Below are positions 1,115 to 52,374 of a DNA stretch of 64,000 nucleotides, in pieces; the first letter of the stretch is position 1, and the number at the start of each line of letters is the position of its first letter. Origin of the DNA: Haemonchus contortus (lineage: Eukaryota > Nematoda > Chromadorea > Rhabditida > Trichostrongylidae); assembly GCA_000469685.2 (NCBI GenBank), contig LS997564.1, positions 26,036,459 through 26,100,458 on the forward strand. Direction: 5' to 3'. Made by a program: the position numbers and the translations under genes. The notes under the pieces are model-generated. The model saw only the letters and a list, made by a program, of their open reading frames with translations, did no database searches and was not told where the DNA came from.

Positions 1115-2556
1115 GGATTCAGCTCATGGTAATATGGGTCCGGGAACTTCTTCCTTAACACGGCGTCGCACACGCCGCACCCGCCGCCTATCGCAGGATT
1201 GCGATGGAAGATTGGAGCGCGCAATTTGTGTGGTGGGGAGTCCTTTAAACATTTGAATTAGCCGGCCGCTCTCTTCAGTTCCAATGCGATTCTGATCGTC
1301 GTTTATATAGGAGGAGTCATTTGAATTAATCAAGTCTAATAAACATGAAAACTCAAAACAAACAGAAGAAAAAACGATAAAATCCAATGAAAAAACAAGC
1401 CAGTCAAGGAAAATTTACGCGTCCTATCGATTGGCGGGAGTACGGTAATTGCAGTGACGTTCGCCGCATGCCGCAAGGGAGAATGCCGCGATAGGGGAGA
1501 AGTTCCGTTACCCTGGTAATATGGAGGTATCATTTTTCAAAATCAAAAAGCGGTAATGTTGCTGTATAATAGTGCCTCCATAGCGCAGAAGATTTGCCGA
1601 GTTCACAAAAAAATAGGGCCTCGTGAAAGTAGTTAAAATAGAGGTTGTACAACATAGCCGTGACGGGAATGGCATGGGAGGAATATTTAGACGGGTTTTT
1701 TCTTGTCGCACTTGCGTAAAGAGTTGACTACATTGAGCCAAAAATGTCCAAAACCGCCTTCCACTGTCGTAATGGGCCACGACTAGTTACTTGAATTCCT
1801 GACATGGGTGCCCCATGGGTTGTGAATGGCGTAACCTTTACAACGTCGCTGAAACTCGTCCGCCTCTAGGTATGGCATACAGTCGACACAATCTTTGGTC
1901 CTTTATAATGCCCTATCGAGGCCGTCATCAGATCCAACAGCGCCTTATTTATTATGCCAGCGGACCTTAGATCCATCCTAGGAGATATCTAAAAAGTAAG
2001 TTGTATCGCAGATTGTGCTCCTTGAAAGCTAGTACTGTCATACAAAAGGCTGTGTTAGGAGTGGAGTCGTCCCTACAGTCATGGTTTGGGATTAAAAGCC
2101 AAGTAAAAGCTTGTTTTCTTACCAGCACGATACTCAGCATATAGTTGAGGAGGAAGAAAATACTAACCTGTAATAATCAGTAAGTAATTAGACTTCCCGA
2201 TTGCTCATCTTAATGACGCATTTGTCTTACGCAGAAGCTGAGGGTTTTGTCCATGTGAACACTGTATTGTTCATATTTTTATAAGAATAGATTAAATGGT
2301 TGCATTGATAAGAGATATAATAACTGTAACAACTAGAACAAAGGGAATAAACAACGAACGCTCACGTCTCACAGTCTGATGACGTTAGAGCATAATCTTC
2401 TATCTAACTCGGTGTTTCACAAAGCTGACTATTTTCTTGTTCTGATAAGAGCTGAACGGATACGCTCTCTTTGCTACTATTCCGTAATTGTTTTCGTATT
2501 ATTGTTTTTCTAGTGATGCTTCCAAGGTCTACAAGAAAGCTTGGAGTCCGAAATAC
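1115..2556. other. No gene seen
   Basis: Between two TTAA-type MITEs. Only short frames without motifs. Confidence 0.5.
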
Positions 2557-3256
2557 AGACACAGTTCACGATAAAATGGTTGCTGAGATCTTCCCCTAGG
2601 ATTACCTGTGCCCCCACCGTCCTGTGGGAAATTTTCGAGTCGAAACACGAATCCAACAGAGCGTTATATGGCTCCACAATCGGCTTATACAACGTACCCA
2701 CCCAAAAGGGACCGTGCTATGGTTGTTAGATTTGCGCCATCAATGAAGCGTGAGCACGTCTTACGCAGACGGCTACAGACACATAATCTCGAGCGACCCT
2801 TTCCTTACTACTTTTTCAAAGCTTTTCTTGAAATATACCATTTTCACGATTTTTTCTCCCTTTTTCGCACCATTCCGCACCATTGGGTCGAGGTGGTGTA
2901 GCGACAAGTGGCGCACTTCATACACGCATGGTCACGGATCCAAATCCCGGATCGATATACGCCTAGGCCAACCAGGCATCCCATCCCTCCGGGATCTGTC
3001 AGTTGGTACAAAACTCGCTTGGAAGGATAGAAACACTGAGTTGTTCATCGGCTGGCCACCGCAGAACATAGTGTATTTCACATACGCATTCAATGCGTCA
3101 CTACGATTCTGAATATAAGTCGAATGCGTGGGTGCACCCCTCTCACAAGAATCAGTGACGCCCCAAGACTGTAATACAAGACTTTACTCTGCATCATAAC
3201 TTTCATTAAAACACTCTAGCTAGATACTTCAGAATTATTTTGAGCTGTGCTTTTAA
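2557..3256. mobile_element. TTAA-type MITE, degenerate copy 2
   Basis: Left ACACAGTTCACGATAA followed by GGTTGCTGAGATCTTCCCC, matching the inside of copy 1. Right end is a decayed GAGCTGTGCTTTTAA. A SINE-A insertion occupies about 2885-3172, and the interior near 2750-2880 matches another copy at 14.9-15.1 kb. Confidence 0.6.
2885..3172 (+). mobile_element. SINE-A copy (tRNA-derived)
   Basis: Begins GAGGTGGTGTAGCGACAAGTGGCGC, has a mutated B box, then the family body (CGGCTGGCCACCGCAG, ACATACGCATTCAAT) and an end near ACGCCCCAAGAC. Inserted in a TTAA-type MITE. Confidence 0.75.
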
Positions 3257-4288
3257 GACTCCATTAATGCAGAAGTGGCAGGTATCATTTAATACCCACT
3301 GAAGTGGATAGGGGAATGTTTCCGTCAGAATCGTGGGCGGGAGTAATAATGTGCAATTCTAGACGTTTCCAGAGCAAATTAGCGTAAGGGAGCGAATTGT
3401 TTGATTCTCTACACAATTATCTCTAAGAGACCAAATTTTGATTCCGCTGCATAAACAAAAACATCATTAATATTGACGTTTGCAAAGCATTACGATAATG
3501 ACATGGTTCAATTTATCCAAGTACATCGTGAGACATTTTGACAATGGGGCTCGAATGTACCCTTTTCAGCAACAATAAAAACCATGTCTGTGCGTGCACA
3601 AGTAGATGTCCTAGAACATTCCATTTATTGGCACTTTCTGACGTAACATGCAGTCTTGATGATGGTTGGACATTTGAACAGACTTTGGAAATTTGTGGTC
3701 TATTGTCAGGCATCAAGGAACATGATACCGTATTGCTTTGTTAAAAATAATGATCACTTGTTAATCGTCTTTATTGACTCGGACAGTGAAACTTAGTGAA
3801 TTGGAGGACATTTTGGAGATGGGACTTGATTGTACCCTTAACGTCTATGCTGACAACCTTTTTCTTGGACCTCAATGCAAAGCCATCATTATTCAATGCA
3901 TTCATGTTCTACATACATCAAACTAATGACACGCTTGCCATTTTGACAAAGCGATGTCATCTCAAGACCTTGTAGTAGAGACTGCATTCACATAATACAA
4001 AGCCAGGATTACCGTGGAAGCTCTAGGAGCAGAGCGGTCTTTGCCATTCATTCATCCAGGGGAAGGGCAGCCGTGGTAAAAAAAAAAGCTTCCCGATTTT
4101 TACAAAGAATACTTTCTTTCCATGGCAGATGTGGTGCGGAATTATTTGAAGACGGAGATGGTTGGGCTCGGGACGGAAATAGAAGTGATTGTAAAGTCTA
4201 ATACTGGAATGTTCATCTAGGGGATCCATGTTTTGAAAGGGTTTCAAGAACCTGGATTCCGCAATAGTCCAACTAATTCTGACTATTA

Positions 4289-40395: not shown

Positions 40396-40770
40396 TAGAT
40401 CGAAATTGGTTCCGAATCACACAGGTGTTACTGAGCGCAGAAAAACTGGTCAATAATGTGTGATAAAGGCAACTATACCTAATAATAAGTATTAGGTTGG
40501 CAAATAAGTCCTGCGACGAAATGGAGACTTTTTTTTAATCGTTTCTAATTTTTTTTTTCATATCAAACAGTTTTCGGAAAAATTTTTACCGAAGAAGTCA
40601 ACAACCTTCTTGTATCCTTTGAGCCAATCACTGATGCCATCTCTTCAGGAATGAGGGAGCTGTAACTCAAAGAAGTAATTGACTGCCGTTTTTGGATCAC
40701 ATTAAATTACGAATTTCTTTTCCATAACGGGATGCTCAAAAAGGTGAAGCACATGGTAGTTAAAAGGGGG

Positions 40771-41242
40771 TATCGCGGAATCCGCGAGTTCGTGCTATAC
40801 GAGAAATTCTTTTCTCTCTCCCATAACATAAGCGAGCTTGCGAGCTTATCAGGGAGAAAAAATCAGAAATTCTCAACGGCGATGGTATGAACAACATAGG
40901 CAGGCTTTAAATACATGGCCTGTAATGCCGCGACTACCTTTTTTCTATCACCTTTTCTTCAGTCTCGCACTTACATTCATCTCTTGCGACCTCGTTTGTT
41001 AGCGAGCATAGTAGTGTTTCGCTCTGAGATTCCTTGGGGTTTAGGAGATTTGAGATTATTGTTAAGGCATATAAGATTTCTGGGACTTCAGATTACACCT
41101 CAGCAGAGTCACTTTGTTATCGCTCTTTCGTGTAACATTCTAGTTTAGCAATAAAGTTTCTGTTTGATATTTCACTGTTGTCCAAACGCGTGGCGGTTAA
41201 ACTCCGGAAGTTATTTATCAAGCATACACGGTCTATTTTATA
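40771..41242 (+). repeat. Left LTR of BEL/Pao element
   Basis: 472 bp, same length and apparently same sequence as the right LTR (constant offset 9796). TTTAAATA at 40906-40913 may serve as a TATA box, and AATAAA lies at 41150-41155. A 77-codon open stretch inside it occurs in both LTRs and is not treated as a gene. Confidence 0.95.
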
Positions 41243-41255
41243 TGGTGCATCGGCC
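41243..41255 (+). other. Primer-binding site, tRNA-Gly-like
   Basis: TGGTGCATCGGCC starts immediately after the left LTR. From memory it is complementary to the CCA end of nematode tRNA-Gly(GCC) over 13 bases. Priming by a tRNA 3' end is the norm for LTR elements. The tRNA identity is recalled and was not checked. Confidence 0.75.
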
Positions 41256-41273
41256 CCAAGGACCCAGGAGTCG

Positions 41274-41278
41274 CAGGT
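41274..41278 (+). promoter_or_regulatory. Possible splice donor in BEL leader
   Basis: CAG|GTACG lies between the primer-binding site and the Gag start, a fair 5' splice site. With an acceptor near the end of env it could make subgenomic mRNA. Inferred from consensus only. Confidence 0.35.
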
Positions 41279-41404
41279 ACGATTTAAAAGAACTTCTAAC
41301 ATTTGAGCAAGATTTTTTTGTGATACTCCATTTTGGAGGCGCACTTGAGATAGTCGTTTCTAAAGTTTTCTTTCCTCTACGATCCAGTTGTCATACATAT
41401 TAAA

Positions 41405-44400
41405 ATGGCAGGACCTGTCCAACTGAAATCGCAAAAAATGCTTCTAACGCGATATACTAATACACTACGTCAGTTGATAACGAAATCCTGCGATATGATT
41501 AGGTCAGACCAAACTCTGCAGATATTATCCCAAATGAGTGTAGAAATAAGCATATCAATCAATTTAGTAAATGATACTCTACGAGATTTCACGGAGGTAG
41601 TAGACCGATTACAAGAACCCTTAACTCAAGACCAGGAGCAACAAATTGATGATTATATTTCAAAAACCCTAGAGGCCCTTGAGGAGGCCAGAGAACTCCA
41701 TGCCCAAATAGAGGTGAAGAAAGTACTATTAAGAGTTCCGAACCCACATAGCGGAACGAACACGATAGAAATTCCATGTGCCAAGGTAGAGTTACCGGCT
41801 ATACCAATCCCCACTTTCACTGGGAAAATTGGGGAATTCGAAAATTTCTGGGCACTTTTTAACGCAAACGTCCACAGTCAAAATCTTTCGAACTTGCAAA
41901 AGTTCAATTACCTCGTAAGAAGCCTAAAGGGCGAAGCAAAAGAAATAATCAAGCGTTATCCTATCACGGATGAAAACTATGATGCCGCTATTAATGCATT
42001 ACAGGCAAAATATGGTGATAAATCGAAACAGATTTATGACCTTCAAGTTCGTTTAGAACGGGCTAAAGCACGGAGCCCTGATATTGAAGAACAGAGAAGA
42101 CTGCTGGACTACATAATTTCGATCACCACCCAGTTAGAGTTCAAAAATGTCAACCTGAACGGTTCCTTCATTGCTCAAAAAATTTTATCAAAATTCCAAC
42201 CAGACCTCCAAAGAAAACTTCTCCGATTACGAATGGGTTCTGAGCGGGTTGAAGAGAATTGGTCTATAAAAAATATTCTCGAGGATCTTGACAATGTAAT
42301 TACAGCAGAGGAAAAGATAACAGAAATGTTACGCAGTAATGAGGAACTCCAAGGAAAGGTTAAACAAACCCTCCCACCCAAGGGACTGAAAAGTGAAGGG
42401 AATTCTATAAGTCGACCACTGCCTTGCCTTTTTTGTCAATTAGGGAATCACACTTCGGGTAACTGTCGAAAAATCAGCACTATTAAAGAAAGAACGGAGT
42501 TTTTACTGCAAAGTAAGCGATGCCTCAACTGCGCGAAAACTGGACATTTGGTGAAAGATTGTTTGAGTAATGGGTGTCATATATGCGACGGAAAGAAACA
42601 TCATTATTCAATATGTCCAAAGAAACAAAACGTGAAGCCCCTAGGGAATACGACTTCACCTAAAAAATCCGCACCCGACGTTTCCGCGATCACAGCGAAA
42701 CGTACGACCAAAGAAGGGAAAAAACCCGCACATCGTCAGAACCTCGCGATTACCAATAGTACGGAACCGCTTCTTACTGACGAAGACGAAGCCACCGCAT
42801 GTTGCATGTCCAATCAAAAAGATGAAAGCACGTCAATGTTTTTTAACAGCAAAGATGTTCTCTTACTTACTGGATGTGCCACAGTACAGAGTCCAACTAC
42901 GGGTCTGCTCAGAAAAGTAGAATTTCTCCTTGATACTGGAGCAGATAGGTCATTCATTAGTCAACAACTGGCAGATGAGTTAAATTTGAAAACACAGAAC
43001 AGAGTAAACTTATCTGTGTTCACTTTTGGCTCGAAAACACCTCAACAAAAAACATATGAGACCGTTTCGCTAGATATCTGGGATATACAGGGCAACACCC
43101 ATAAAATCCTCCTATGCAAAACTGATATCATTACGGAGAAAGCGAAACAAGTCCATCTGACACCTCAAGATATCGACTACCTGCGGAAAGAAAATATTCT
43201 CCTTGCTAAAGCTAATACCACCTCGGTGCATCCCCAATTACTTATAGGGTGTGACCAACTCTGGCCCCTGTTGCATACATCAAGCCCACAACACATTCTT
43301 CCTTCAGGGTTATTTGCAATACCATCCAAATTAGGCTACCTATTAAGCGGGCGTCAGGAAAACGATTCTTCAATTATTAACCTGTTTGACACGTCAACCG
43401 TAGGAACCTTGGAGGTTAATGATGTAGACCAATGGGACCACTATTGGTCTTTGGAAGCGGCAGGAGTTGAAGAATTCACAGGCGCCAGATATGCAGAAAA
43501 ATTGGCCGTTAATGCGAAAGTACAACAGTTTTTTAATGACACTATAGAAAGGCGGGAAGACGGCTACTATGTTCGTCTTCCCTTCAAAGATAACAAGTCA
43601 GAGCTGCCTTCTAATATAACACTAGCATATCGCCGTTTGCTTAGTGTCTTAAAATCCCTTAGAGCAAAGCCCGAACTACTCAATCAGTACAATGAAGTTT
43701 TTCGAGATCAGTTAGAAAAGGGAATATTAGAAGAAATTCAGGAGCCGGGCTTGAATTGCTCCAAATTAGTACATTATTTGCCTCATCAACCGGTAATAAC
43801 TCCACTCAAAGAAACCACTAAGCTACGTGTAGTTTATGATGCCTCCTCTCACGTTAGGGGTTACCCCTCGTTGAACGAAGTCATTCACCAGGGACCTCTT
43901 ATACTCCCTGACTTATATGGACTCTTGTTAAAATTCCGCACATCACCACACGTTGCGATTTCCGATGTTGAAAAAGCCTTCCTACAAGTAAGATTAAATG
44001 AGGAAGACAGGGACGTAACGAGGTGCCTCTGGGTAAAGGATATCAATAAAGAGGCAAAAGGCGAGAACCTTGCGGTTTATCGATTTACAAGAGTCACGTT
44101 CGGGATAAATGTATCACCCTTTCTTTTGGCAGCTACTATTAGATACCATATTGAACATGAAGTGAAAGACGTAGAGTTAGCAAGCGAAATTAGTGAAAAC
44201 CTCTATGTAGACAACTTGATACTTTTGGCAAACAATAAAGAAGATATTTTGAACAAAGCACTTAATGCGAGAACTATTTTCCAGCAAATGAACATGAATC
44301 TGCGCGAGTTCCTTATAAGTGATAAAACGGCACTAGAACTTCTTCCAGCAGAAATATGTTCAAAGAAAAGGGAACAAAAAGTCCTAGGGGTTCTTTGGAA

Positions 44401-47400
44401 TTCTGAGAGCGATACATTGTCAATAACATGTACGTTCGCAAAAGCTCCCAAAATTACTAAACGAGTAGTTGCCCATCAGATAGCTTCCATTTACGATCCG
44501 TTGGGATGGCTGGTCCCTCTGCTTGTTCAACTCAAATGCTTCCAACAAAAGTTATGGATAGAAGGGTATGATTGGGACCAGGAAATTTCCCAAACACTCT
44601 GCGAGGAGTGGAGGAAACTTTGCGATGGAGCCGATGGATTCCAAAGGACATTCCAGAGGGAAATTCCGATACAACACCCGAACGTCAACATAGCCGTATT
44701 CGCTGACGCCAGTGACCATGCAATGGCAGCCTGCGCATACGCTATCAACTTCGAAAACAATTCTTTACTCATGGCAAAATCAAAATTGCCTTCCATTAAG
44801 ACAAAAACAACTATTCCAAAATTAGAAATGAATGCCATGACTATGGGTGTTCGAATGGCTAGGTCAGTATGCGAAAAATTGAAAAAAATGACTAAGGCGA
44901 TAAAATTCGTATTCATTTTTACGGATTCTCAAATAGTTCTTAACTGGGTAAATAAACCGATTGAGCAGAAGGGTCTCGGAGTTCTAGTACGTAATCGGAT
45001 AAAAGAAATCCGCGCAATACTGTCATCATTACTCAAAGAGGGAATAACCGTATTCTTTGGATATGTACCAACAAAACTGAATCCAGCTGATATAGGCACG
45101 CGAGGCCTTTCTAAAGAGCAATTTAGAACAAGTGATTGGTGGAGTGGACCAGCATTCTTGCGAGAACCGATATCTTTATGGAATGGTCCCTTGATCAAGG
45201 TGGCGGATTTAGAATTCAGGGAAGAAACTCCCATAGAATTAGAAACAACTTTCAACTTCATGACGGTTAATATTGAAAACGACAGCGACTTTCAATTTCC
45301 ATTACATCGCTATAATTCACTCAAAAAAGGAATACGCGTCATGGGCTGGATACTTAGGTTTTTGAGAAATCTGTTAAAACAATTGCCTGGCCCAAGCAGA
45401 GAACGTATTTTACGAAACATTCCAGAGCTGCAGCAATTCTCAGAAATAATAGGAACATTAAACGGATTAGAAATACGCAAAGCGAGGCAAATGATAATTA
45501 GAAACCATCAGCTGTCCGTTCTCTCCCCAGAGTACATTAAATCCATGAACAAGACCCTAAAATTGTTCAAGGATAACGATGGGTTGTGGCGGGCTCGGGG
45601 GAGACTAGGAAAAGCATCCCTGACAGATGACGCGAAATTCCCTATATTCATCGCTCCCAATACTGAATTGGCATCAAAAATCATAAGCGAAGCCCATGGT
45701 ACATATCACAAAGGTGTATCTCACATAATGGCAACTGTGCGAGAAAAATATTGGATACCCAAATTAAGACAGCAAGCTCGGAAATTAACTAGTCAGTGTG
45801 TAAAATGTAGACGTTTTAACGCGGTACCCTACTGTTATCCGGATACACCAGACCTTCCCCCACACAGAGTACAAAAAACTAGACCGTTCGAGAATATTGG
45901 GCTAGATTTTTTTGACTTGCCCCCAGTCAAAGAAAATGGCGAACTGAACAAATCATATGGATGCATTTTCACCTGTGCAGTGACACGAATGGTACACCTA
46001 GAAGTATTGCGAAGCATGAGTACAGAAAACTTCCTTAATGCCTTGCGAAGATTTTTTTCGCGACGCGGTGTCCCCGCCTCAATAACGTGTGACAATGCAC
46101 CAACCTTTCTTTTAAGTGCCGAAATTCTAAGTAGTACCAGTCGAGATGAAGTAACTGGGTTCTTAGCGAATAATGCGATAGAATGGAAACACATAACTCC
46201 TTATGCCCCTTGGCAAGGAGGTTTCTACGAAAGATTAATAAAGTCCATAAAACACTCGTTCTATAAGGCGATTGGACGAGCACAGCTTTCATTCGATAAC
46301 CTCACAACCATCATTACAGAAGTCGAAGCAACGATAAATACGCGACCTCTAACGTACCAAGAATCTAATCTTGAGGAGTTCAGCTCTCTTAGACCTATTG
46401 ACTTTATTCAAAATCACATAGATATGACGTTTCCATTCGAAAATATAGAGATCAATACCTCAGACCCAGATTACTTACCCCCGGCAGAAAAGTTATCCTT
46501 AGAAACTCGACAGCAAGCAATTCACGCCCTACATTCATCTATCAAGTTTACAGATCGTTTTTGGACGTTGTGGCAACAACATTATCTAACTAGTTTGCGC
46601 GAACAACACAAATCAAGAATTTCACAAGGTCGTACTAGCTCGTCAGATCCAAAAGAAGGTGCGTTAGTTCTTGTCACGGATCCCAGCCTACCACGCAACG
46701 AGTGGAAGATGGCGCGTATAATCAGTCTTAAACCATCATTGGACGGAACAGTCAGAGAAGTAGAGTTAATGACCTCGAATAGGCGAAAAATTAGAAGACC
46801 GGTAAACCTTATCGCGCCAATGGAAATCACTTGTAATGAACCAGATTTGCCTAAGGACCACGAAGCCAACCGCAGTTCACAAAAAGCTTACAACTTGCGA
46901 CCCCGAAAAATAGTCAACTATAACGGAAACACAATAACAACGCCATTAGGACTTCACTCACCCAAGGAGATAATTACCTCGCTCACTATTTTAACATTGC
47001 TATCTGTTTTCAGTATATCTTCTTGCCAATATATTCATATGGAATGCAGTGAGAAGGGAATCATTATAAGAAACGAGAACAGGATAGCGTTTGAGGTTTG
47101 CATCGAAACTGAATGCAAAGCTTATGCGAACTCCACCCCTTATGAGTTGGTGAAATTCGATCCGCAGCTCACGCTTCATGAACATAGCGTTTTTCTCAGA
47201 TGGCAGATAAATCAAACAATCTCTTCAATGGAAATGACCTGTCAGGGGTTAGAATTTTGCGCAAATCTGCAATGCTCACTTTGCCTAGCAGTGCTACTTA
47301 ATCCGGAATGTTGGCCTATAGGATCTCTACTCATCATTTTTCTCATAATTTATCTCATAACGGCATTATTATATGCACTCCTCTATGTCCCTATCACCGT

Positions 47401-49171
47401 GGGAAAACCTATCAGATTGTTGGCAACATTTATACTTATCCTCAGTCGTAAAGTCGTCATGCTTACCCTTCACATTCTAGGTAAACTCACGCGAATTCCA
47501 GCGAAATCAAGCGAAAGCATACGATTACGAAAAATTGCGGAAGCACTTGCAGTTCTTACAGTATGTCATCAGGTATATTTTTCTGCGAATGCTTGCCAAG
47601 ATTTGGACGCCTTTTCGGTGAACTCGGAAATATGCTCTACATCTAAGGATTGCACAATAACCTTACTAGAGATCCTAAAACTCAATAGCTTCAAACAGCA
47701 AGCTTGTTTACGCATTTATGCGAATAATTCACTTATTTCACGATTAACCTTACGATGGAAGGGTTTAGATCTTAGTTGCGATCACGATACGATTTCCTTT
47801 ACTCGCGACGCCGATCTTCACGTTTTAGACAGTAAACGATGCCCTCTTATGGGATCTTGCAAAGGAAACAATTGCGCTAACATTAAAACAACAGACCTGA
47901 TAGAAGACTTAGAAGAGGCAAATAGCTACCCTGGTAAAACACATTGTATGGAATCATGTGGGGGATTGGGCTGTAATTGCTTTTTACCTAGTTCTGGATG
48001 TTTATTTTATCGAGTTTACGCAATACCAAAAAGCGATGAGATTTACGAAATATCGCGATGTATTATGTGGAAGGAGCGAGTAAAGTTGGAAGTTACCATT
48101 GAGCGCGAAGGGAAATCCCATCATTACGTTATTGCAATGATGCCCAACGTACCAAAAATACTGCAAAACTTTACAATAACAATGACTTCGCTAGCGATCC
48201 CACCCTTACCCATTCTTGGTGCGAAATTTATTTCAAATGGACTCAACTTTGCGTTTTGGCGTGAGCACGATAAGTTTTTACTGCACTGCAATTCAAGAGA
48301 AGCGGCGCAAAATCTCAGCTGCGATTTTCATGATAACTGTCATTGCAACCCTGCAGAAAATAAAGTAATATGCGAATGCCAAACGATATCAGCTGGTGAA
48401 ATTTTCAATGATATCTCTCGCAAACTACCGATAAATATAGGCACAGCACGGTTCTTTCAAATGAACAACTCACAAGTTGTAGCACGTATACGTGATACAA
48501 CTTCCTCAGAATTCATCATCAAATTTCAAAGTGCAGTGGAGAATACCTCTCAAGAAGTGCGAAAACATCCGTGTTCAGTAAAAAACGCGATTCTCACAGG
48601 ATGTTATCGCTGCTGGAGAGGAGCAGAGGCGATTATATCCTGCAATTCCCCACATTTCACGATAGGAGAGGTTATATGTGACCGCGAAACCTTCGTTATT
48701 CAATGCTCTCCGAAAGGGGAAAAGAGCACCCTACGATTTATGCGAAATTATGCAAGAAACCGAATAAACTGCACATTAAGATGTGCAAAAGAGAGTTATT
48801 TTGTTCTTACAGGCCTCTTAAAATTTGTAGAACCTTGGCATTATCCAGGGAAAGCAAATCTAAAAAATAGTCAGGCAGCATTCCAATCATGGGAATGGCC
48901 AGATTTTTTCCATATAAGCGATATCCTATTTTCTTGGCAAAAATCTATTCTCATTTTAATTATACTCCTTATGCTCGTGCTCGTATTCACGTATCTCTAC
49001 TTGCCATTTATTCTGGCGTTTCTGATTCGAAGTGCGATACGAATAACACTTTGGATATTCCTAACGATTCCTATGCAAATTATGCGAACCTTATTTACGG
49101 TTTGTCGACAACAATTGAGCGAAAAATTTCACATCCAACGCGAGAAGGCATATTGCGAAAAATCACTATAA
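41405..49171 (+). CDS. BEL/Pao Gag-Pol-Env polyprotein, 2588 aa
   Basis: Polyprotein for particle assembly, reverse transcription, integration and membrane fusion. Approximate residues: coiled-coil start 1-125; capsid-like DUF1759 129-275; three CX2CX4HX4C knuckles (341-354, 373-386, 391-404); aspartic protease with DTGA at 510-513; RT with Asp854 and YVDN at 934-937; RNase H Asps 1101 and 1174; integrase zinc site H1431, H1435, C1465, C1468; integrase catalytic D1501, D1563, E1609; DUF5641-like tail about 1720-1810. Then a hydrophobic leader (about 1860-1876), a short Gn-like ectodomain, a membrane segment (about 1972-1995), a second leader (about 2046-2060) and a Gc-like ectodomain with a Cys cluster at 2181-2192 resembling the phlebovirus G2 family. 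A C-terminal membrane anchor lies at about 2514-2550. No break is seen. RT has YVDN instead of the usual YVDD. Fusing env to pol without a stop implies cleavage or a spliced env mRNA. Confidence 0.96.
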   Translation: MAGPVQLKSQKMLLTRYTNTLRQLITKSCDMIRSDQTLQILSQMSVEISISINLVNDTLRDFTEVVDRLQEPLTQDQEQQIDDYISKTLEALEEARELHAQIEVKKVLLRVPNPHSGTNTIEIPCAKVELPAIPIPTFTGKIGEFENFWALFNANVHSQNLSNLQKFNYLVRSLKGEAKEIIKRYPITDENYDAAINALQAKYGDKSKQIYDLQVRLERAKARSPDIEEQRRLLDYIISITTQLEFKNVNLNGSFIAQKILSKFQPDLQRKLLRLRMGSERVEENWSIKNILEDLDNVITAEEKITEMLRSNEELQGKVKQTLPPKGLKSEGNSISRPLPCLFCQLGNHTSGNCRKISTIKERTEFLLQSKRCLNCAKTGHLVKDCLSNGCHICDGKKHHYSICPKKQNVKPLGNTTSPKKSAPDVSAITAKRTTKEGKKPAHRQNLAITNSTEPLLTDEDEATACCMSNQKDESTSMFFNSKDVLLLTGCATVQSPTTGLLRKVEFLLDTGADRSFISQQLADELNLKTQNRVNLSVFTFGSKTPQQKTYETVSLDIWDIQGNTHKILLCKTDIITEKAKQVHLTPQDIDYLRKENILLAKANTTSVHPQLLIGCDQLWPLLHTSSPQHILPSGLFAIPSKLGYLLSGRQENDSSIINLFDTSTVGTLEVNDVDQWDHYWSLEAAGVEEFTGARYAEKLAVNAKVQQFFNDTIERREDGYYVRLPFKDNKSELPSNITLAYRRLLSVLKSLRAKPELLNQYNEVFRDQLEKGILEEIQEPGLNCSKLVHYLPHQPVITPLKETTKLRVVYDASSHVRGYPSLNEVIHQGPLILPDLYGLLLKFRTSPHVAISDVEKAFLQVRLNEEDRDVTRCLWVKDINKEAKGENLAVYRFTRVTFGINVSPFLLAATIRYHIEHEVKDVELASEISENLYVDNLILLANNKEDILNKALNARTIFQQMNMNLREFLISDKTALELLPAEICSKKREQKVLGVLWNSESDTLSITCTFAKAPKITKRVVAHQIASIYDPLGWLVPLLVQLKCFQQKLWIEGYDWDQEISQTLCEEWRKLCDGADGFQRTFQREIPIQHPNVNIAVFADASDHAMAACAYAINFENNSLLMAKSKLPSIKTKTTIPKLEMNAMTMGVRMARSVCEKLKKMTKAIKFVFIFTDSQIVLNWVNKPIEQKGLGVLVRNRIKEIRAILSSLLKEGITVFFGYVPTKLNPADIGTRGLSKEQFRTSDWWSGPAFLREPISLWNGPLIKVADLEFREETPIELETTFNFMTVNIENDSDFQFPLHRYNSLKKGIRVMGWILRFLRNLLKQLPGPSRERILRNIPELQQFSEIIGTLNGLEIRKARQMIIRNHQLSVLSPEYIKSMNKTLKLFKDNDGLWRARGRLGKASLTDDAKFPIFIAPNTELASKIISEAHGTYHKGVSHIMATVREKYWIPKLRQQARKLTSQCVKCRRFNAVPYCYPDTPDLPPHRVQKTRPFENIGLDFFDLPPVKENGELNKSYGCIFTCAVTRMVHLEVLRSMSTENFLNALRRFFSRRGVPASITCDNAPTFLLSAEILSSTSRDEVTGFLANNAIEWKHITPYAPWQGGFYERLIKSIKHSFYKAIGRAQLSFDNLTTIITEVEATINTRPLTYQESNLEEFSSLRPIDFIQNHIDMTFPFENIEINTSDPDYLPPAEKLSLETRQQAIHALHSSIKFTDRFWTLWQQHYLTSLREQHKSRISQGRTSSSDPKEGALVLVTDPSLPRNEWKMARIISLKPSLDGTVREVELMTSNRRKIRRPVNLIAPMEITCNEPDLPKDHEANRSSQKAYNLRPRKIVNYNGNTITTPLGLHSPKEIITSLTILTLLSVFSISSCQYIHMECSEKGIIIRNENRIAFEVCIETECKAYANSTPYELVKFDPQLTLHEHSVFLRWQINQTISSMEMTCQGLEFCANLQCSLCLAVLLNPECWPIGSLLIIFLIIYLITALLYALLYVPITVGKPIRLLATFILILSRKVVMLTLHILGKLTRIPAKSSESIRLRKIAEALAVLTVCHQVYFSANACQDLDAFSVNSEICSTSKDCTITLLEILKLNSFKQQACLRIYANNSLISRLTLRWKGLDLSCDHDTISFTRDADLHVLDSKRCPLMGSCKGNNCANIKTTDLIEDLEEANSYPGKTHCMESCGGLGCNCFLPSSGCLFYRVYAIPKSDEIYEISRCIMWKERVKLEVTIEREGKSHHYVIAMMPNVPKILQNFTITMTSLAIPPLPILGAKFISNGLNFAFWREHDKFLLHCNSREAAQNLSCDFHDNCHCNPAENKVICECQTISAGEIFNDISRKLPINIGTARFFQMNNSQVVARIRDTTSSEFIIKFQSAVENTSQEVRKHPCSVKNAILTGCYRCWRGAEAIISCNSPHFTIGEVICDRETFVIQCSPKGEKSTLRFMRNYARNRINCTLRCAKESYFVLTGLLKFVEPWHYPGKANLKNSQAAFQSWEWPDFFHISDILFSWQKSILILIILLMLVLVFTYLYLPFILAFLIRSAIRITLWIFLTIPMQIMRTLFTVCRQQLSEKFHIQREKAYCEKSL

Positions 49172-50511
49172 ATTGCAAGTTCATCACTAATCAAGTTTTT
49201 ACAGAAAGATCTCGCTTATACACCGAACAACAACGCGCCAAGATAGAACTAAAGCGACTCAAATCAGCCCTTCCGCCATTTCCAACTCCTGATCAGCTTT
49301 ACAAGAACATAGTCTGTTGTTGTGGCGAAATTATGTACCTCATTGAATTGATAGACAATATTAAGGCAGATGTAGCTATCTTTTTTCAAGGCAATGAACC
49401 GTGGGGAATATTAGAGCGAAACGCCCAAATCAAAGAACTAACTATCAAAAACTATTCTCTAAGACTGCGAAGTTTGCGACAAAGTCTCTCTCTTCTGTAC
49501 TCCGCTGTCCCGGTCATGATTGCGATAAAAGCTACATCCACTAAAGCATGGCAATCTTATATGACCACCCCGCAGAAGTACACAAAGCAATCTGGAGAAA
49601 GGGCCCCACTTCTAACAGATCAACAGGATATCGAACGCGTACTGAGCGATTACGAGCAAACGATCGAGGAATTGCTCACAAAGATAAAAGATATCCGCGA
49701 AGAATGCCTGTATCAGGAACGTTTCCAAGAAGACGACACTGGAAGGAAAATCTACAACGAGGTGAAGAGGCTCAACAGACAACTCAGCGAACTACAAGAA
49801 GCTCTACAGCAAGAACAACGCCCAGAAACCACAACAAACCAGACACAAACGGAAAATGAAGGACAGGCGCACATGGAGGGCGATGCCATCCACGAGGACG
49901 AACAGGTGCACATGGAGGGCGATGCCATCCACGAGGACGAACAGGTGCACATGGAGGGCGATGCTGTCCACGAGGACGAACAAGAAAAGATAATGGAAAA
50001 CGTGGAATATATGGAAGTTGTCAACGAGGACCTCGAGGATTATCCGCCACCACAAGACGATGCTATCATTAAGGCCTTAGAAGCCGAACTGAGCACCGTT
50101 TACGAACGACTCAAAAGACTTTCAAAAGAAAAAACTTGCTTTCCGCGAAGATACGAGACGGGAGTTAACCGAGCTGGCGAAGTAACCATGAAGTGTGCAT
50201 TTTGTAATACCCCAGGAGATCACTATTCTGACTCCTGTAGACACGCACCAACCGTAGCGGAACGATTAGATTATCTCAGGAAGCAGAACCGCTGTAAAAT
50301 GTGCTTGGAAACTCAGTGTAATAAGGATTACTCCTGTCCAAAGTTCAGGAAACCATGTCACCATTGCAAGAAAACCGGCCACGCTTCAGCTGTTTGCACC
50401 TTGCCGGAAACTTCATTAGAGATTGCTACGCAGAGGTCCCAACTACAGATAACAGCTGATCGGATCCTGAAGCAGTTGAATGCTTTGCGAAACTCATTTC
50501 CAGAGAGATAA
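48889..50511 (+). CDS. BEL/Pao 3' ORF, nucleocapsid-like zinc-knuckle protein, 540 aa
   Basis: Extra frame after env, in a different phase and overlapping env by 283 bp. Residues 1-94 lie in the overlap and may not be translated. From about residue 105: a charged helical region; coiled coils (about 245-310 and 390-415); three 13-residue repeats starting HMEGDA (328-366); then three zinc-knuckle-like modules: CX2CX5HX4C (436-450), CX2CX4CX5C (469-483) and CX2CX4HX4C (490-503). The first two are separated by 18 residues including ER..xL...R, the same spacing as in the element's Gag, so this module is probably homologous to Gag nucleocapsid. No capsid, enzyme or membrane domain is visible. The true start is uncertain: acceptor TTTTTACAG ends at 49204, and the next in-frame ATG (in IMYLIEL) lies near 49333. 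Role unknown; RNA binding is an inference. Confidence 0.85.
   Translation: MGMARFFPYKRYPIFLAKIYSHFNYTPYARARIHVSLLAIYSGVSDSKCDTNNTLDIPNDSYANYANLIYGLSTTIERKISHPTREGILRKITINCKFITNQVFTERSRLYTEQQRAKIELKRLKSALPPFPTPDQLYKNIVCCCGEIMYLIELIDNIKADVAIFFQGNEPWGILERNAQIKELTIKNYSLRLRSLRQSLSLLYSAVPVMIAIKATSTKAWQSYMTTPQKYTKQSGERAPLLTDQQDIERVLSDYEQTIEELLTKIKDIREECLYQERFQEDDTGRKIYNEVKRLNRQLSELQEALQQEQRPETTTNQTQTENEGQAHMEGDAIHEDEQVHMEGDAIHEDEQVHMEGDAVHEDEQEKIMENVEYMEVVNEDLEDYPPPQDDAIIKALEAELSTVYERLKRLSKEKTCFPRRYETGVNRAGEVTMKCAFCNTPGDHYSDSCRHAPTVAERLDYLRKQNRCKMCLETQCNKDYSCPKFRKPCHHCKKTGHASAVCTLPETSLEIATQRSQLQITADRILKQLNALRNSFPER
49196..49204 (+). promoter_or_regulatory. Possible splice acceptor for the BEL 3' ORF
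   Basis: TTTTTACAG ends 33 bp after the env stop and lies inside the 3' ORF. It matches the nematode acceptor consensus. The ORF's best-formed part begins just after it. Confidence 0.4.
49870..49986 (+). repeat. Three 39-bp tandem repeats inside the BEL 3' ORF
   Basis: Units 49870-49908, 49909-49947 and 49948-49986. Each encodes a 13-residue acidic unit beginning HMEGDA. Units 1 and 2 are nearly identical; unit 3 has small changes (Val for Ile and a different end). The multiple-of-three length keeps the frame open. Confidence 0.95.
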
Positions 50512-50566
50512 GGAAAGACCATGATCGACTCTCGGGGCGCTCGCAATCATACTTCGCGGCCGGGAG

Positions 50567-51038
50567 TATCGCGGAATCCGCGAGTTCGTGCTATACGAGA
50601 AATTCTTTTCTCTCTCCCATAACATAAGCGAGCTTGCGAGCTTATCAGGGAGAAAAAATCAGAAATTCTCAACGGCGATGGTATGAACAACATAGGCAGG
50701 CTTTAAATACATGGCCTGTAATGCCGCGACTACCTTTTTTCTATCACCTTTTCTTCAGTCTCGCACTTACATTCATCTCTTGCGACCTCGTTTGTTAGCG
50801 AGCATAGTAGTGTTTCGCTCTGAGATTCCTTGGGGTTTAGGAGATTTGAGATTATTGTTAAGGCATATAAGATTTCTGGGACTTCAGATTACACCTCAGC
50901 AGAGTCACTTTGTTATCGCTCTTTCGTGTAACATTCTAGTTTAGCAATAAAGTTTCTGTTTGATATTTCACTGTTGTCCAAACGCGTGGCGGTTAAACTC
51001 CGGAAGTTATTTATCAAGCATACACGGTCTATTTTATA
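50567..51038 (+). repeat. Right LTR of BEL/Pao element
   Basis: 472-bp match to the left LTR, ending just before the 3' GGGGG target duplication. It supplies the AATAAA signal at 50946-50951 for transcripts of the element. Confidence 0.95.
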
Positions 51039-52374
51039 GGGGGAAAACTTCGGGAGTACGACTGATGAGTAACCTGGAACCAAGCGAGAATGGTGAACTT
51101 TTGACGTGGGTCTGAAGCGAATTTTCGACTTAAGTAGTCCCTCCGTAGGGACCTGACATACGGTCTGCTCGTCCTTCTCTAACCCCGTTGGCCAAATAAA
51201 GGGGATCATAGGGGCAAGTGATAGCTGTGTCCATCTAGACTGCGTTTAGCAACTCATAGTGAATGGATTCCTTCAACCTCCATTAACTTAAGGGACGATG
51301 CTTGCGTTACTCCGAAAGCTATTATCTCCCGCAGTGAAGCGATCCAACCGGTCGTTGACCGTTGATTGGTGAGCAGTGCTAGCATCAAATAGATTGATGA
51401 TATTTCGAGCCACTACACACGCATTTTTCCCTTGGCGTGCTTAGTAGAAGGTGATGGTACAAATCGGGTGTTGTCCATTCATTGATCGTAATGCTGCTGA
51501 AGCCCACACGCGTGCCCTTATTTACTCATGTGTTGATTACCTGAGTAATGCCCTACAAGTTCATCACTCTTGATACCGTGTTCACACTGTTTATACAAAT
51601 TGCTGACGCTTCAAATTTTTTGTCGCAGGACCAATTTGCCAACATAATACATATTGGAAGCTACTATGTCCCAGGAAAACAAAGGAATCATTTTGATTCG
51701 AAAACTATGTTTAAATGAGACTGTATAATCCAATGTCCAACGAGTGGTGCGGGGATCAAGTCTCCTCGGTCAAGATAATGATCCCAAACAATAATGATCC
51801 TAAACAAGTGTGTGCTTTCTGGAATAAAATTCGTCTCCGTATTTTCAGTTATTTTCACGAAAACTTCATTTGCACTTGTTTGGAGAAGGATCCTTGCGTA
51901 CTAGCCTTGCATATTTGTGCCCGTTCCCTATTAGAAATAGTATATGTAGAGCGGTTCACTCCCTCATGACATGTCGGACTTTTCATCAACGAGTGTCTAC
52001 CAGTTTTTGAGACCCTAGCAATGAGAACTTGGCAAGTTGAAGGTTGATCGGAGAAGTCTTGGACTACTTTTTTAACCGGCCCCCCATCGAGTTTCGGAAG
52101 TAAAGAGAATAGGGAGGATCAACTTGCCTGAGCAGTTTTCGTAGAAAATGCAAATGGCAAACGAATATAACGAAAGATTCCGGCTTTTGAATGGTAAGAT
52201 GGACTGGTTAGGTAGAAAGCGATCATGATGGTTGTGGTCGTTCACGCCTGTACCCATTATGAACAACATGCGACAATTAAGTAGAGTTTGAAATACGTGC
52301 ACTTTCCTACGCCCTGTCGCTTTTTTCTTGCCTTCATCTGGCATCTATCCAATCGACCGTCGTTCAAGCGACTG

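What the first reader, a model, noticed from the sequence alone, without database searches (positions are those of the whole stretch)
48889..50511. A second nucleocapsid-like ORF after env in a BEL/Pao element
The sequence shows a 540-codon open frame beyond env, out of phase with it. It has coiled coils, acidic repeats and three zinc-knuckle-like modules. The first two modules are 18 residues apart, exactly as in the element's own Gag, and the linker shares an ER..xL...R pattern. Retroelements normally carry one nucleocapsid, inside Gag. A free-standing copy after env suggests an accessory RNA-binding or packaging protein, made by duplicating or capturing a Gag 3' module. The second knuckle has Cys in place of His.
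Basis: partly seen in the sequence, partly recalled or inferred. Interest (0 to 1): 0.88.

Follow-up and report, generated by a model that had tools for sequence, protein, structure and literature searches.

The report
Spliced RNA-binding accessory gene, nematode retroelements
The extra reading frame is the end of a real, long-conserved gene carried by many virus-like mobile elements of a parasitic worm; it encodes a probable RNA-binding helper protein that seems to be made from a spliced message, which would make these elements more complex than they look.

Summary
In detail: coiled coils, three acidic repeats, and three knuckles with Gag's 18-residue spacing. But the first ~105 codons are the out-of-phase end of env; homology mostly starts at residues 103-119, and the gene begins at a splice acceptor 33 nt after the env stop. 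It is no one-off: 98 matches (72 merged loci, a lower bound) in this genome, probably Haemonchus contortus, and relatives in Trichostrongylus, Ostertagia, Cooperia and H. placei. It lies downstream of 34 of 42 closer BEL/Pao integrases, with or without env between. The three pairs with dS of 0.09 or more give dN/dS 0.13-0.20. Its knuckles descend from a Gag-type nucleocapsid by one old split; the helical N-terminal domain has no known relative. Seven of 8 leaders carry one donor motif, and in 8 of 11 tabulated elements an acceptor lies 1-4 nt before the ORF2 ATG. Best reading: a spliced accessory protein acting on unspliced genomic RNA, like CERV of Cer1. Function is inferred; the window copy's start codon is unresolved.

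The parts
40771..41242 (+). 5' LTR (TAT...ATA); GGGGG target duplication at 40766-40770
   Evidence: identical to 3' LTR, 0 differences in 472 nt
41243..41256 (+). primer-binding site TGGTGCATCGGCCC directly after the LTR (tRNA-Gly complement: recalled, not tested)
   Evidence: TGGTGCAT follows the 5' LTR in the 7 elements tabulated; an eighth, L034, has TGGTGGCATC
41270..41282 (+). leader splice-donor-like site CAG|GTACGA, cut between 41276 and 41277
   Evidence: GGTA[AC][GC] 24-51 nt after the PBS start in the 7 tabulated leaders (58 of 2217 control 90-nt windows); L034 has CAG|GTGAGC instead; the motif was chosen after reading the leaders
41405..49171 (+). gag-pol-env, one frame (DUF1759 Gag, protease, RT with YVDN, integrase, phlebovirus G2-like env)
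42425..42616 (+). Gag nucleocapsid: three CCHC knuckles
48889..49204 (+).
49196..49204 (+). splice-acceptor-like TTTTTACAG, ending 33 nt after the env stop
49205..50511 (+). ORF2 proper (434 codons from 49207, then stop); first in-frame ATG inside it at 49333
49207..49815 (+). N-terminal all-helical domain (ORF2 residues 1-203, 10-residue mean pLDDT 77-95)
49858..49982 (+). three acidic 39-nt repeats in a low-confidence linker
50194..50397 (+). three zinc-knuckle modules (CCHC, CCCC, CCHC), HYSDSC and CLE..C signatures
50401..50493 (+). C-terminal helix / coiled coil
50567..51038 (+). 3' LTR; GGGGG target duplication at 51039-51043

Best explanation
ORF2 is a conserved accessory gene of a large group of nematode BEL/Pao elements. 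It encodes a protein of about 390-490 aa: a helical, probably multimerising N-terminal domain, an acidic flexible linker, three knuckles of Gag-nucleocapsid origin, and a C-terminal coil. SHOWN by sequence: conservation, purifying selection in the more diverged pairs, position 3' of pol or env, NC homology, splice-site-like geometry. INFERRED: a subgenomic mRNA is spliced from the leader donor to the acceptor next to the ORF2 start, removing gag-pol-env; the protein binds the element's own unspliced genomic RNA through its knuckles and multimerises on it; it thereby lets this intron-containing RNA leave the nucleus and reach Gag, as CERV does for Cer1 and Rev for HIV. My estimates: real gene 0.97; spliced expression 0.85; acts on genomic RNA 0.7; nuclear export as the main step 0.35.
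For: Relatives in four trichostrongyloid genera at 34-54% identity. 98 matches = 72 merged loci in the own genome, from 80 of 519 first-look candidates scored. ORF2 downstream of 34 of 42 integrase matches of at least 55% identity to the window's (cut chosen on seeing the list); of the 8 without, 2 were fetched and both carry a diverged ORF2. dN/dS below 1 in 7 of 7 pairs; 0.13, 0.17 and 0.20 in the three with dS of 0.09 or more (two of these share L007). Knuckle homology to Gag NC. Donor motif in 7 of 8 leaders; acceptor 1-4 nt before the ATG in 8 of 11 tabulated elements, against 44 of 1244 ATGs for that loose acceptor pattern and 18 of 1244 for a strict one that 6 of the 11 meet. ORF2 and IN identities go together (Spearman 0.66, 15 non-independent pairs). 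CERV shares position, spliced message, Cys-rich region and helical domain and is required for genomic RNA export (PMC10309623, passages).
Against: No transcript or protein data were available. In the window copy no ATG follows the acceptor: the PBS-overlapping ATG (41242) is in phase 2 at the donor, while an exon from 49205 needs phase 1 (an acceptor at 49208 would fit). L007 has no in-frame ATG behind its acceptors in the tested place, and in L018 and L050 no clear acceptor was seen before the ATG. In several relatives ORF2 is in one frame with pol (L019, L021, L025, L027; L046, L047), which could put it in the particle. Four young pairs (dS below 0.03) have dN/dS 0.28-0.66, and in 2 of 6 pairs ORF2 is less constrained than the upstream IN/env frame. 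No structural match beyond generic helical bundles. In two distant elements no ORF2 was found in the 4.0 and 5.0 kb fetched (L048, L049), so not every BEL/Pao element needs it. NLS and NES were not tested.
Confidence: 0.6

Rival explanations
1. ORF2 is a second, virion-borne nucleocapsid: made alone from spliced RNA or as the C-terminal piece of Gag-Pol, it coats or chaperones genomic RNA in the particle during packaging and reverse transcription.
For: Knuckles of NC origin; ORF2 in frame behind integrase in L019, L021, L025, L027 and L046, L047, which would place it in the particle.
Against: The Gags read here (window, L037, L038) keep their own three knuckles; ORF2 proteins are acidic overall (pI 4.9-6.0, 15 rows), unlike typical basic NC (recalled); acceptor-plus-ATG geometry is present even in in-frame elements (L027, L038, L046, L047).
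Confidence: 0.25
2. ORF2 regulates or antagonises something else: a dominant-negative copy-number control derived from Gag, or a counter to host small-RNA silencing.
For: A Gag-derived inhibitor exists in Ty1 (p22, recalled); worms silence LTR elements with small RNAs (PMC13195028, title, abstract start and passages).
Against: Present over deep divergence of integrase and constrained in the more diverged pairs; no capsid domain detected that could poison assembly.
Confidence: 0.1
3. Chance open frame or a once-captured host gene without function.
For: The 100-codon overlap with env can be open by chance (224 of 5000).
Against: Conserved across genera and many element lineages and constrained.
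Confidence: 0.02

Closest known systems
CERV of Cer1 (C. elegans, Ty3/Gypsy)
   Same: Large frame between pol and 3' LTR, product of a spliced mRNA with TTTCAG-type acceptors, cysteine-rich region that might be a zinc finger, helical domain (PMC10309623, passages).
   Different: Cer1 is Ty3/Gypsy; CERV has a possible C4 finger, a five-exon mRNA and gag-frame exons. ORF2 has three NC-type knuckles. CERV letters were not available, so homology is untested.
Gag nucleocapsid of nematode BEL/Pao elements
   Same: Three knuckles, 18-residue first linker with ER..xL in the window pair, profile match E 2.6e-9.
   Different: No DUF1759 capsid domain found; second knuckle mostly CCCC; HYSDSC and CLE..C signatures; separate branch.
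Atlas virus (Ancylostoma ceylanicum belpaovirus)
   Same: One Gag-Pol-Env frame, YVDN RT, phlebovirus-like env (PMC9094657, passages).
   Different: 9204 nt with 271-nt LTRs and 2828 codons leaves about 175 nt: no room for ORF2 (my arithmetic from those figures).
ORF3s of bdelloid rotifer LTR retrotransposons
   Same: Extra 3' frames expressed from spliced messages (PMC5408684, passages).
   Different: The passages name env-like, DEDDy exonuclease, GDSL lipase, CC and TM types; the word 'zinc' does not occur in its main text.
HIV Rev
   Same: Proposed job: binding and multimerising on unspliced RNA for export (as described in PMC10309623).
   Different: No sequence or fold relation tested or claimed.

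Membership tests
BEL/Pao element (Belpaoviridae) | DUF1759-type Gag, protease, RT, integrase in that order between LTRs; YVDN RT motif of nematode members | tested here: met
   YVDN described in PMC9094657 and visible
Gag nucleocapsid module | homologous triple knuckle module | tested here: met
Gag protein | capsid domain (DUF1759) upstream of the knuckles | tested here: not met
   no DUF1759 for window ORF2 at E<=1, nor among the 25 of 30 families shown for six relatives; N domain vs Gag prob 0.8%
CERV | position between pol (or env) and 3' LTR | tested here: met
CERV | spliced mRNA | tested here: inconclusive
   splice-site geometry only; no transcripts
CERV | sequence homology to CERV | not tested
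   CERV sequence was not returned by any search
CERV / Rev-like exporters | required for nuclear export of genomic RNA | not testable with these tools
   needs experiment
zf-CCHC (Pfam PF00098) | score above the curated cut-off | tested here: not met
   no zf-CCHC hit for window ORF2; the window's Gag knuckle also stays below the cut-off (13.8 vs 20.8 bits)

The most novel reading that the evidence does not exclude
Nematode BEL/Pao viruses are 'complex retroviruses' of their own making. An ancient Gag-NC module was fused to a new helical domain, gained a spliced mRNA with a leader donor and its own acceptor, and became a Rev/CERV-like regulator of genomic RNA that stayed with these elements while env came and went, convergent with CERV of Ty3/Gypsy and Rev of lentiviruses.
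Probability: 0.3. Interest if true: 0.85.

Novelty: new variant of a known kind. Interest (0 to 1): 0.66.

Why it matters
Elements whose RNA contains an intron must get the unspliced form out of the nucleus. How belpaoviruses do this was not described in the passages I saw. A conserved, apparently spliced, NC-derived accessory gene, carried by elements with near-identical LTRs among others, gives a concrete protein and a concrete RNA junction to test. It also shows how an element can turn part of a capsid gene into a separate protein.

Tried and rejected

Literature: seven answered searches listed 10-20 papers each; among the rows listed I saw none on a knuckle-bearing frame 3' of pol or env in nematode BEL/Pao. 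The library is open-access only. Bowen & McDonald 1999 and Malik 2000 are not held. The first is cited in PMC9094657 for overlapping frames in C. elegans elements, so extra frames as such are not new there. Frame 2001 was seen as a reference entry only. PMC3118150, PMC5408684, PMC9094657, PMC10309623 and PMC13195028: passages only. PMC7264820: listing and abstract start only.
Full report
WHAT IS THERE. The window lies in a genome of 283 Mb in 7 contigs. A protein predicted from Haemonchus contortus shares a long identical stretch with ORF2 (95% over 55% of the query), so the species is probably that one. The element runs from 40771 to 51038: LTRs of 472 nt without a difference, GGGGG on both sides, a primer-binding site directly after the 5' LTR, one gag-pol-env frame with DUF1759 Gag and a phlebovirus G2-like env (E 9e-93). 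A second copy on C1 is 99.97% identical over 3.3 kb, with 434 of 434 ORF2 residues identical.

THE FRAME. But the 540-codon frame is too long. Relatives from Trichostrongylus, Ostertagia, Cooperia and H. placei (34-54% identity) align from about residue 106 on. Own-genome matches of the long query start mostly at residues 103-119, a few at 83-98. The overlap with env is open in 224 of 5000 synonymous shuffles. The conserved part starts at a TTTTTACAG ending at 49204, 33 nt after the env stop.

HOW WIDESPREAD. The ORF2 query gives 98 matches (80 of 519 candidates scored), 72 merged loci. Of the 30 loci fetched, 21 have no stop in the match, 16 of these match over 400 residues or more (the window's copy among them), and 9 have stops. 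The integrase query gives 104 matches (104 of 945 candidates scored). ORF2 lies within 6.5 kb downstream on the same strand in 34 of 42 with IN identity of 55% or more and in 1 of 62 below that; the 55% cut was set after seeing the list, and groups were not defined by a tree. Of the 8 without ORF2 in the first group I fetched 2 (L044, L045), and both have a diverged ORF2 (profile E 1e-46 and 1e-52), L044's broken by a frameshift. Of 6 fetched in the second group, 3 (L046, L047, L050) have an ORF2-like protein, matched from the middle of the profile on, 2 (L048, L049) show none in 4.0 and 5.0 kb, and 1 (L051) has env followed by a different frame. So ORF2 reaches beyond the 55% group, and the sharp 34/42 against 1/62 contrast partly reflects search sensitivity.

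ARCHITECTURE. Env lies upstream of ORF2 in L007, L009-L012, L026, L030 and L032; in L019, L021-L025, L027-L029 and L033 integrase lies upstream instead and no env match was found in the 1.5-kb flank. In L019, L021, L025 and L027 ORF2 is in one open frame with pol, as in L046 and L047. For six further elements (L037/L039, L038, L040, L041, L042, L043) both LTRs were found and are 98-100% identical, so ORF2 lies inside the element.

EXPRESSION. Seven leaders were tabulated: all 7 have GGTA[AC][GC] at 24-51 nt after the start of the primer-binding site, against 58 of 2217 control 90-nt windows. An eighth leader, in the degraded L034, has CAG|GTGAGC, a donor but not this motif. The motif was chosen after reading the leaders. 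In 8 of 11 tabulated elements a pyrimidine-rich AG lies 1-4 nt before an ATG that opens ORF2 (L013, L022, L026, L027, L028, L038, L046, L047); in L012, L030 and L045 the best-scored AG lies 9, 14 and 18 nt before it, and L030 also has TTTAG 3 nt before. Left out of that table: the window (no ATG), L007 (the ATG matching that of L012 is out of frame), L018 and L050 (no clear acceptor before the ATG), L031 (degraded). Rates among 1244 ATGs of these elements, true starts included: 44 for the loose acceptor within 4 nt, 18 for a strict CAG one that 6 of the 11 meet. The elements are related, so they are not independent draws. This is the geometry of a cis-spliced message; SL trans-splicing to the same acceptor is not excluded. 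Against a tidy picture: the leader ATG at 41242 of the window is out of phase with an exon starting at 49205, and the first in-frame ATG after the acceptor is at 49333, which would drop conserved N-terminal residues.

A degraded relative (L003/L034) consists of LTR, short leader, ORF2 and LTR; gag-pol-env is missing and the junction lies within 7 nt of both a donor-like and an acceptor-like site. It is not an exact splice product, so I count it as suggestive only.

SELECTION. NG86 dN/dS for ORF2: L024/L028 0.13 (43 synonymous, 23 nonsynonymous changes; dS 0.16), L007/L009 0.17 and L007/L012 0.20 (dS 0.09-0.10; not independent). Young pairs, dS below 0.03: L009/L012 0.28, L044/L045 0.29, L030/L032 0.51, L025/L027 0.66; and L009/L011 0.46, L010/L011 0.55, L010/L012 0.37 (L009/L010 and L011/L012 had no synonymous change). 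Upstream IN or env frames gave 0.22 (L024/L028), 0.33 (L007/L009), 0.19 (L009/L012), 0.33 (L044/L045), 0.52 (L030/L032, 136 codons only, L032 env broken) and 0.31 (L025/L027); L019/L021 had no synonymous change. ORF2 is thus similar to or lower than its neighbour in 4 of 6 pairs and higher in 2. The diverged pairs show constraint; the young pairs carry too few changes to say much.

ORIGIN. Profiles of 15 ORF2 and 11 Gag knuckle modules match with probability 96.2% and E 2.6e-9 over 69 columns (P0022 was dropped because the module pattern did not fit, and two Gag rows are identical). On a tree of 25 modules, ORF2 (15) and Gag (10) form two sides of one branch (95/93; 0 of 500 shuffles as low). 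Five near-duplicates had been removed and four ORF2 modules added; the tool warns of long branches (P0025, L050, L045), and the root is not placed. Window ORF2 groups with Trichostrongylus, Cooperia and H. placei ORF2 (95/93), not with window Gag. The second knuckle is C-C-C-C in most; L024, L028 and L045 lack that Cys, and L046 has C-C-H-C like Gag, which fits descent from a Gag-like module. The N-terminal domain shows no match to Gag and is a fairly confident helical model without a specific structural relative. ORF2 and IN identities correlate across six lineages (Spearman 0.66, 15 non-independent pairs), as expected if they travel together.

FUNCTION. RNA binding follows from the knuckle family, multimerisation from the helical and coiled regions; both are inferred. 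The closest functional parallel is CERV of Cer1: a 3' frame, spliced mRNA, cysteine-rich region and helical domain, required for export of unspliced genomic RNA (PMC10309623, passages). In-frame fusion to pol in some relatives speaks for a particle role instead; I give this 0.25. The 15 members scored are acidic overall (pI 4.9-6.0), with an acidic linker and a net-positive knuckle region.

NOVELTY. Extra frames in LTR elements are known (PMC5408684, passages; PMC7264820, abstract start), and overlapping frames in C. elegans elements are cited as known in PMC9094657. Among the rows listed by the seven answered searches I did not find a conserved, NC-derived, spliced stand-alone protein in BEL/Pao. 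Atlas virus, the studied hookworm belpaovirus, has no room for it by its published dimensions. Nothing in the second check changed my odds; it corrected counts and ranges and added.

Noticed in passing
L006 (G000:C1:31769288 region), locus 102-2654: A short LTR element with this family's LTRs (97.5% to the window's, 99.8% to each other) contains part of a Glyco_transf_49 coding sequence (E 1.6e-47) followed by AATAAA and a poly(A) run, joined to the 3' half of ORF2: it looks like a host mRNA captured by reverse transcription. The search for the source gene did not complete.
   Followed up: partly
L051 (G000:C5:36696850-36700850), locus 2615-3760: A more distant env-bearing BEL/Pao element has a different frame after env: 381 codons, serine-rich, RS/SR-rich at the end, without knuckles; perhaps another accessory protein.
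   Followed up: no
L034/L003 (G000:C3:12763022-12766122): Old LTR-leader-ORF2-LTR mini-element (repeats 76% alike over 306 nt) lacking gag-pol-env.
   Followed up: partly
window 41242; leaders of 8 elements: The LTR end plus the primer-binding site gives ATGG in all 8 leaders read, a small upstream reading frame; in the window and L042 it stays open to the donor.
   Followed up: partly
L047 (G000:C1:671100-675100), locus 2327-4003: Long tandem repeat coding for (IHTY)n behind the ORF2-like end of this element.
   Followed up: no
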